Made by a program: the position numbers and the translations under genes
From: Iphinoe sp. HA4291-MV1
GTDB taxonomy: Bacteria; Cyanobacteriota; Cyanobacteriia; Cyanobacteriales; Nostocaceae
Length of the DNA: 47,225 nucleotides
Reading direction: 5' to 3'
Assembly: GCA_019359415.1 (NCBI GenBank)
Contig: JAHHHH010000060.1
Location: 1 to 47,225 of the forward strand
Notes under the pieces: model-generated
The model's database searches: none
The model's input: the letters and a program-made list of their open reading frames with translations, nothing else
Told to the model about the DNA's origin: nothing
Part shown: one piece after another, positions 22,656 through 25,177 of the stretch
Layout: the number at the start of each line of letters is the position of its first letter
Numbering within the stretch: position 1 is the stretch's first letter

Positions 22656-23238
22656 TCAGCTAGAGCTTAAAAGCGTTGTTCGCTTTCTGTCAGACTTTCT
22701 TTCGCCTGCAAAAGCTAAACTGAGTAACAATTTGAGTTCGCTAGAGGTTAAATCACGCCATTGACCTGGTTGCAAATCATTTAAGTGTAAGTGGGCAATG
22801 CTTACCCTAACCAGTCGCAAAGTCGGAAATCCCACAGCCGCTGTCATTCTCCTAACCTGACGATTTTTCCCCTCTGTCAGGGTCATTTCCAACCACGCTG
22901 TTGGCACATTTTTGCGAAATCTAATTGGCGGATTGCGCTCTGGTAAAGAAGGCTCTGTTGGCAGTAGTTGCACCAAGGCTGGTCGAGTGCTGTAATCTTG
23001 GATCATCACACCTTCTTGTAGTTGCGTCAAAGCCGCAGCATCAGGAATTCGTTCGACCTGTACCCAGTAAGTTCGTTCGTGTCCAAACCGAGGATGACAG
23101 AGGCGATGTTGCAATTGTCCATCGTTAGTCAACAGCAGTAACCCCTCACTGTCCCAGTCTAAACGACCCACAGGATACACATCGGGAATCTCGATATAGT
23201 CTTTGAGAGTGCTACGAGTGGGAGTGTCTTTTGTAAAC

Positions 23239-23452
23239 TCAGTAGACCGAAAACTTTTGTCAGTCAACGCAAGAATGAGGGTTTGGGGCGATGTTTTGGG
23301 CACAGGGTCGAGCGATCGCTTACCTTAGCAGGAGAACTCATCTACAACCCTATTGCTCAAAACGCAGATGATACGGGCATTCTGGCGGATTGTATACAAT
23401 CCGCCAGAATGCCCCAATGGTAAGCCTTCTAGAAATCTTTTCGGTCTACTGA
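23239..23452. mobile_element. 214-bp MITE inserted in the pseudouridine synthase gene
   Basis: Terminal inverted repeats TCAGTAGACCGAAAA (23239-23253) and TTTTCGGTCTACTGA (23438-23452) are perfect. The target duplication is AAC (23236-23238 and 23453-23455). Inside is a 40-bp perfect palindrome (23375-23414) and no transposase. The protein-level repair of the host gene on excision proves the borders. It also contains a GCGATCGC site. Confidence 0.92.
23375..23414. repeat. 40-bp perfect palindrome inside the MITE
   Basis: Left arm GGGCATTCTGGCGGATTGTA (23375-23394); the right arm is its exact complement with no spacer. As DNA it could extrude as a cruciform; as RNA it forms one long hairpin. 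Confidence 0.95.
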
Positions 23453-23697
23453 AACTGGCTGAGCACACCATATGGTTTGTAAAACAGAATGTATCGGTAA
23501 GTCATTAGTCAAAAATCAAAAATCATTCTCTGTGTCACCTCATTTCCCTCCCTACAATAATGATAAATAAAGGCAACTAAGTGCCAAAATTCTATAACTT
23601 TGCCCAAGCCGCTGATCCAACTCCATAACCACTGTCACTTCAGAAATTCTTAACTCGCTTGCTCTGACCTATAACGAAAATGCTAAAATCGTTTCTT

Positions 23698-25177
<1,480 letters not shown>

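What the first reader, a model, noticed from the sequence alone, without database searches (positions are those of the whole stretch)
22656..23505. A 214-bp MITE splits an RluE-type pseudouridine synthase and offers it a new 5' end
Seen: perfect 15-bp terminal repeats, an AAC duplication, and a host gene that becomes continuous (KPYGVLSQ + FTKDTP) when the element is removed. Native translation stops after 19 residues inside the element. The element carries a GTG whose frame re-enters the native frame exactly at the Phe after the target duplication, giving a chimera of 22 element-derived residues plus the catalytic body. Inference: either a fresh pseudogene or a MITE-born chimeric rRNA enzyme. 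Automatic annotation would call it an intact 215-aa enzyme.
Basis: partly seen in the sequence, partly recalled or inferred. Interest (0 to 1): 0.78.

Follow-up and report, generated by a model that had tools for sequence, protein, structure and literature searches.

The report
Recent mobile-element insertion breaking rluE gene
A short non-autonomous mobile element of a known transposon family has recently inserted near the start of a ribosomal-RNA modification gene in a cyanobacterium, most likely inactivating it; the intact-looking enzyme that remains on paper uses a start codon inside the element and is what chance predicts.

Summary
The insert is 212 bp (23240-23451), with 14-bp perfect terminal repeats (CAGTAGACCGAAAA) and a 5-bp target duplication AAACT, not 15 bp plus AAC. 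I extracted 52 distinct full copies from the genome, 43 identical to this one and 9 sharing one substitution, so the burst looks recent. The A...T 5-bp duplications and CAGT ends match the ISH3 transposon family; an intact ISH3 element in the same genus has the same 14-bp ends. No ISH3 transposase is assembled in this draft, but one contig starts inside an ISH3 end, so the parent may sit in an assembly gap.

All 109 rluE-type loci examined (not all independent) are uninterrupted here and keep KPY..L.QF; the GTG-started chimera lacks this segment. Start-bearing element frames meet the host frame in 14 of 27 genic insertions (14.1 expected), and the element's peptide evolves as if neutral. A fresh knockout is the best reading; a working chimera is not excluded but unsupported. 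Annotation would be fooled: the chimera passes a pseudouridine-synthase cut-off. An ISH3-type MITE in Nostocales is a new member of a known kind; MITE gene disruption and MITE-host fusion frames are in print.

The parts
23240..23451 (.). ISH3-type MITE, 212 bp
   Evidence: 52 distinct full copies in the genome, 43 identical; borders set by the 5-bp duplication
23235..23239 (.). target duplication AAACT, left copy
   Evidence: sequence; rule A-NNN-T across copies
23452..23456 (.). target duplication AAACT, right copy
   Evidence: sequence
23240..23253 (+). left terminal inverted repeat CAGTAGACCGAAAA
   Evidence: same 14 letters at both ends of an intact ISH3 element in the same genus (L287)
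23438..23451 (-). right terminal inverted repeat
23375..23414 (.). perfect 20+20-bp palindrome inside the element
   Evidence: hairpin in the RNA fold
23446..23505 (-). native 5' end of the rluE-type gene, ending at a stop inside the element after 19 residues
22656..23239 (-). native body of the rluE-type gene with the GRLDWDSEG stretch; from F18 on it keeps every column that is invariant in 35 orthologues
22656..23303 (-). chimeric open frame from a GTG in the element, 215 aa, 22 non-native residues
   Evidence: no evidence of translation

Best explanation
A non-autonomous 212-bp element with ISH3-family ends recently transposed, by ISH3 transposase supplied in trans (inferred), into codons 17-18 of an intact rluE-type 23S rRNA pseudouridine synthase gene and duplicated 5 bp of target. 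Translation from the native start now ends after 19 residues. The remaining 193 native codons stay open only because the element happens to offer an unblocked outward frame with a GTG; the most likely outcome is loss of function (inferred). Shown: insertion, copy number, target rule, family ends, uninterrupted orthologues. Inferred: recency, trans-mobilisation and loss of function.
For: Copies: all 40 candidates scored (of 97) match 214 of 214 bases; 52 distinct full copies, 43 identical and 9 with the same one substitution. [quoted passage not shown] ends CRGT). Parent family: a degraded full-length element whose 3 pieces match NF033541 ISH3; ISH3 genes over the cut-off in 8 of 120 genomes searched, the own included, one of them in the same genus with identical 14-bp ends and flanks ACCGT/ACCGT. 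Orthologues: 80 of 80 named loci and 29 of 29 further loci uninterrupted here. Chance control on restart frames: 3 of 10 leftward and 11 of 17 rightward, against 4.2 and 9.9 expected from codon phases of ANNNT sites in this window. Dispensability: 4 of 41 genomes show only weak, paralogue-like hits.
Against: No ISH3 transposase is assembled in this genome (none; one 43-residue relic with 2 stops), so the mobilising enzyme is not seen. The rluE body is not decayed, so loss of function cannot be read from the sequence. The chimera still scores 176 bits for TIGR00093 against 180 and 183 for two orthologues, and one alignment sets its K16 opposite the conserved Lys of E. coli RluE. 4 of 52 copies lack equal 5-bp flanks; one of these has a 6-bp match. 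Genic copies favour codon phase 1 (16 of 27, against 34% of background sites), in both orientations, which I do not explain.
Confidence: 0.82

Rival explanations
1. MITE-born chimeric enzyme: ribosomes start at GTG 23303 (or the downstream in-frame TTG) and make a working pseudouridine synthase with an element-derived N terminus.
For: Open 215-aa frame; from F18 on, every column invariant in 35 orthologues is kept; scores above the TIGR00093 cut-off; phmmer sets chimera K16 opposite the conserved Lys of E. coli RluE.
Against: The contiguous segment KPY..L.QF of all 109 loci is gone; MAFFT recovers only a Pro there, beside a 10-residue insertion. Frame agreement over the genic copies is near chance; the element's peptide shows no purifying selection (154 nonsynonymous and 59 synonymous codon changes, 72%, against 69-74% expected for random single changes). 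About 140 nt lie between the native stop and the GTG, with a strong hairpin between; I saw no obvious Shine-Dalgarno by eye. The structure model is too poor to use either way (mean pLDDT 52, no control).
Confidence: 0.08
2. The element is a coding cassette kept for its peptide, like the Rickettsia palindromic elements.
For: The leftward frame lacks stops in 27 of 28 distinct gapless left-end matches of 45 nt or more taken from the loci held.
Against: Nonsynonymous share as expected without coding constraint. The insertion adds 217 bp, which shifts the frame. Genic insertion is depleted: 27 of 52 against 2343 of 3000 ANNNT sites sampled in this window.
Confidence: 0.03
3. Assembly artefact: the element was placed into rluE by a misjoin.
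For: The draft breaks at this repeat: 8 contig ends lie 120-124 nt inside it.
Against: The insertion has its own 5-bp duplication of the host gene's bases on both sides and lies mid-contig; a misjoin would not be expected to create it.
Confidence: 0.03

Closest known systems
ISH3 family insertion sequences (NF033541; PMC2266710, passages)
   Same: Ends CAGT..., 5-bp duplications with A and T at the borders, identical 14-bp ends in an intact same-genus element
   Different: This element has no transposase gene; the 2008 survey described ISH3 as so far restricted to archaea, here it is cyanobacterial
MITEs of Anabaena sp. 90 (PMC3542288, passages)
   Same: Cyanobacterial MITEs, some inside genes and causing pseudogenes (15 of 147 there)
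   Different: Those were called type II, without a matching insertion sequence in the genome; here the ends match ISH3
Enterobacterial repeat units with open frames (PMC2759123, abstract and outline) and Rickettsia palindromic elements (PMC10969869, passages)
   Same: Small mobile element contributes residues to a host open frame
   Different: Here the frame agreement is near chance and the insertion shifts the native frame
RluE 23S rRNA pseudouridine 2457 synthase (2oml, 2olw)
   Same: An intact orthologue aligns with E. coli RluE over residues 4-181 of 201
   Different: The chimera's alignment to RluE starts only at residue 14

Membership tests
MITE (non-autonomous, short, terminal inverted repeats, target duplication, multicopy) | Short, no transposase, inverted ends, duplicated target, many copies | tested here: met
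   212 bp, 14-bp perfect ends, 52 distinct copies, equal 5-bp flanks in 48
ISH3-derived MITE | Ends shared with an autonomous ISH3 element | tested here: met
   Same 14 letters at both ends of an element with a 378-aa ISH3 transposase over the NF033541 cut-off in the same genus (L287)
[quoted passage not shown]
   48 of 52 distinct copies equal, all A....T; rule from PMC2266710
ISH3-derived MITE | ISH3 transposase in the same genome | tested here: inconclusive
   None assembled, but contig C63 begins with 124 nt of an ISH3 right end, 82% identical over 113 nt to a full-length element
RluE | N-terminal KPY..L.QF segment kept by all orthologues examined | tested here: not met
   Native gene split; the chimera has no contiguous segment, only F and, by one alignment, K16
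RluE | Catalytic aspartate motif [14 protein letters not shown] (motif and role recalled) | tested here: met
   [14 protein letters not shown] at chimera residues 46-59
RluE | Curated RluE cut-off NF008487 (284 bits) | tested here: not met
   Chimera 175.7; two intact cyanobacterial orthologues also miss it (196.9, 200.2), so the RluE name rests on similarity
RluE | Makes pseudouridine 2457 in 23S rRNA | not testable with these tools
   needs RNA mapping

The most novel reading that the evidence does not exclude
The ISH3-type MITE acts as a portable start site: about half of its genic insertions leave a chimeric frame (14 of 27), and the rluE chimera is translated and still modifies 23S rRNA although the conserved KPY segment is replaced by transposon-derived residues.
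Probability: 0.06. Interest if true: 0.68.

Novelty: new member of a known kind. Interest (0 to 1): 0.3.

Why it matters
It documents what looks like a very recent burst of an ISH3-type MITE in a cyanobacterium, with a clear target rule and many gene disruptions, and it is a clean example of an annotation trap: an interrupted gene that passes a family cut-off as an intact enzyme. The near-identical copies, 14 of them with chance chimeric frames, form a natural set for asking how often such restarts are translated.

Tried and rejected
Looking for a parent beside single ends in the own genome gave no frame that I recognised as a transposase (read by eye, not scanned). A plasmid search with the element gave 4 records and no parent; an IS5-type gene lies near one hit, outside its repeats. 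Coding selection on the element's peptide: rejected. My first chance figure for restart frames (1/3 and 2/3) took codon phases as equal; with phases of ANNNT sites weighted it became 4.2 of 10 and 9.9 of 17. Promoter or terminator: one weak promoter-like match inside the element; 4 in the region against 1.9 in shuffles; not used. Structure of the chimera: mean pLDDT 52, residues 1-74 under 50; the control with an orthologue was never accepted, so nothing is concluded. Papers: the exact 15-letter end is in 0 papers; ISH3 + MITE + cyanobacteri in 1 (listing only); 'ISH3 family' + Nostoc in 1 (listing only). The paper on Anabaena PCC 7120 insertion sequences and open frames is not held and I know it, like Nezha, only from citations in PMC10969869.

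Full report
What is there. The window lies on a 7.36-Mb, 140-contig draft (G000:C65). On the minus strand an rluE-type pseudouridine synthase gene is split by an insert. The native start (23505) reads MTYRYILFYKPYGVLSQFQ and stops. The remaining native codons are open, and a GTG at 23303 inside the insert leads into them in frame, giving 215 residues. The insert has 14-bp perfect inverted ends CAGTAGACCGAAAA and lies between two copies of AAACT, so it spans 23240-23451, 212 bp.

Copies. A search of the own genome scored 40 of 97 candidates and all 40 matched 214 of 214 bases. The 15-bp end occurs 129 times exactly, the pattern read backwards 0 times. From the loci fetched I extracted 53 rows, of which one repeats another (L182 and L004): 52 distinct full copies, 43 identical to the window copy and 9 with the same single substitution. 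The extraction asked for exact ends and an exact first 22 bases, so diverged copies are not counted; one 211-bp element with the same ends and equal flanks AAGGT was left out this way. Equal 5-bp flanks occur in 48 of 52; in all of these the first base is A and the last is T. Of the 4 others, one has a 6-bp match (AATGTT). Eight contig ends lie 120-124 nt inside the element, so the true number is somewhat higher.

Family. Left ends related to this element occur in 41 of 198 genomes searched, the own one included, with at most 4 candidates scored per genome; matches to the whole element or part of it in 15 of 60, the own included, at most 13 scored. One locus of a family relative (L258) carries such ends 1.5 kb apart around three pieces of an ISH3 transposase. 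ISH3 genes over the curated cut-off occur in 8 of 120 genomes. Of 12 elements in which I could pair both ends (L276, L280-L285, L287, L288, L291-L293), 9 have equal 5-bp flanks and 7 of these are A....T. The same-genus one (L287) has exactly the MITE's 14-bp ends. [quoted passage not shown] I therefore file the element as an ISH3-derived MITE.

Where is the transposase? The own genome gives no NF033541 match and only a 43-residue relic with two stops to the same-genus transposase. But a pattern for the ISH3 ends, with up to 3 mismatches, hits 7 places. One, at the start of contig C63, is the last 124 nt of an ISH3 right end, 82% identical over 113 nt to the element of L258 and 77% to that of L287, cut at the same depth at which other contigs are cut inside the MITE. 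The simplest reading is that an ISH3 parent is present but fell into assembly gaps; this is inference. A 257-bp element on C48 (L171) with ISH3-like stretches at both ends looks like an internal deletion, from general knowledge the usual way such MITEs arise.

The gene. 80 named orthologue loci (the best 80 of 218) and 29 from unnamed relatives (30 loci less the own; some are the same genomes) are all uninterrupted at this place; all 109 have KPY-x-[VI]-L-x-QF. One search counts a stop inside the matched stretch in 8 of 37 orthologue-grade rows; in the 7 of these fetched, the frame runs on for at least 164 residues from the point where the match starts, so those stops lie near the C terminus. 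In a 35-row orthologue alignment F8, K10, P11, Y12, L15, Q17 and F18 are invariant. The chimera has no such contiguous segment: MAFFT sets only a Pro and the final Phe there, with a 10-residue insertion, while phmmer sets K16 opposite the Lys of E. coli RluE. From F18 on, the body keeps every column invariant in the 35 orthologues. From memory, the Lys-Pro segment is motif I of pseudouridine synthases, with a structural role; I could not check this (one search listed three papers, none read). The gene seems dispensable: 4 of 41 genomes give only weak, paralogue-like matches.

Is the new 5' end meaningful? In 27 of 52 distinct copies the empty site lies in an open frame of at least 130 codons; for 17 of these 27 one piece, or for the window the chimera, has a Pfam match above gathering score (one of the 17 is a 'shadow ORF' model). 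A start codon in the element is in the host frame in 3 of 10 insertions read leftward, as here, and 11 of 17 read rightward. The element has a start-bearing outward frame for 1 of 3 leftward and 2 of 3 rightward codon phases; weighted by the codon phases of ANNNT sites in long frames of this window, 4.2 and 9.9 are expected, 14.1 in all against 14 seen. Phase 1 is over-represented among the copies (16 of 27 against 34% of sites), both leftward, where it offers no start (5 of 10), and rightward, where it does (11 of 17); so it does not follow the start, and I leave it unexplained. The outward peptide of the left end is open in 27 of 28 distinct gapless matches of at least 45 nt, but codon changes are 154 nonsynonymous to 59 synonymous (72%; positions 107/52/100), against 69-74% for random single changes: no sign of coding constraint. 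Genic insertions are fewer than the background (27 of 52 against 2343 of 3000 ANNNT sites sampled in this window), as expected if they are harmful; that background comes from this window alone.

The predicted structure of the chimera is uninformative (mean pLDDT 52), and the orthologue control could not be run.

Verdict. An ISH3-type MITE insertion, apparently recent, that most likely knocks out rluE. The chimera is best read as a chance by-product of an open outward frame. It would pass as an intact enzyme (176 bits against a cut-off of 109 for TIGR00093). MITE gene disruption in cyanobacteria and MITE-host fusion frames are in print (PMC3542288 and PMC10969869, passages; PMC2759123, abstract and outline). 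I did not find an ISH3-type MITE of Nostocales in print in three searches, two of which listed one paper each that I did not read; this is not proof of absence.

Noticed in passing
window 23693-23790 +: TPP riboswitch (RF00059, 64.9 bits) upstream of a 459-aa frame that looks like thiC (thiC name from recall).
   Followed up: no
L194 (G000:C63:1-124) and L171 (G000:C48:37130-37386): Contig start inside an ISH3 right end, and a 257-bp element with ISH3-like stretches at both ends: probable unassembled parent and a second internal-deletion derivative.
   Followed up: partly
L168, L170, L165 (G000 contigs C99, C26, C89): Single ends 86-91% identical to the MITE ends over 35-47 nt: probably decayed older copies, so the family may have had earlier rounds in this genome.
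   Followed up: partly
L200, L179, L003, L018, L181, L013 and others: Copies interrupt frames for a TonB receptor, a non-ribosomal peptide synthetase, a 2-hydroxyacid dehydrogenase, a protein kinase, a TENA/THI-4 protein and a trypsin-like protein.
   Followed up: partly
27 genic copies: Insertions favour codon phase 1 for the first base of the 5-bp target (16 of 27 against 34% of ANNNT sites in long frames of the window), in both orientations.
   Followed up: partly
window 23375-23414: Perfect 40-bp palindrome inside the element; related elements elsewhere share it partly or lack it, so it may be a later addition. Function unknown.
   Followed up: no
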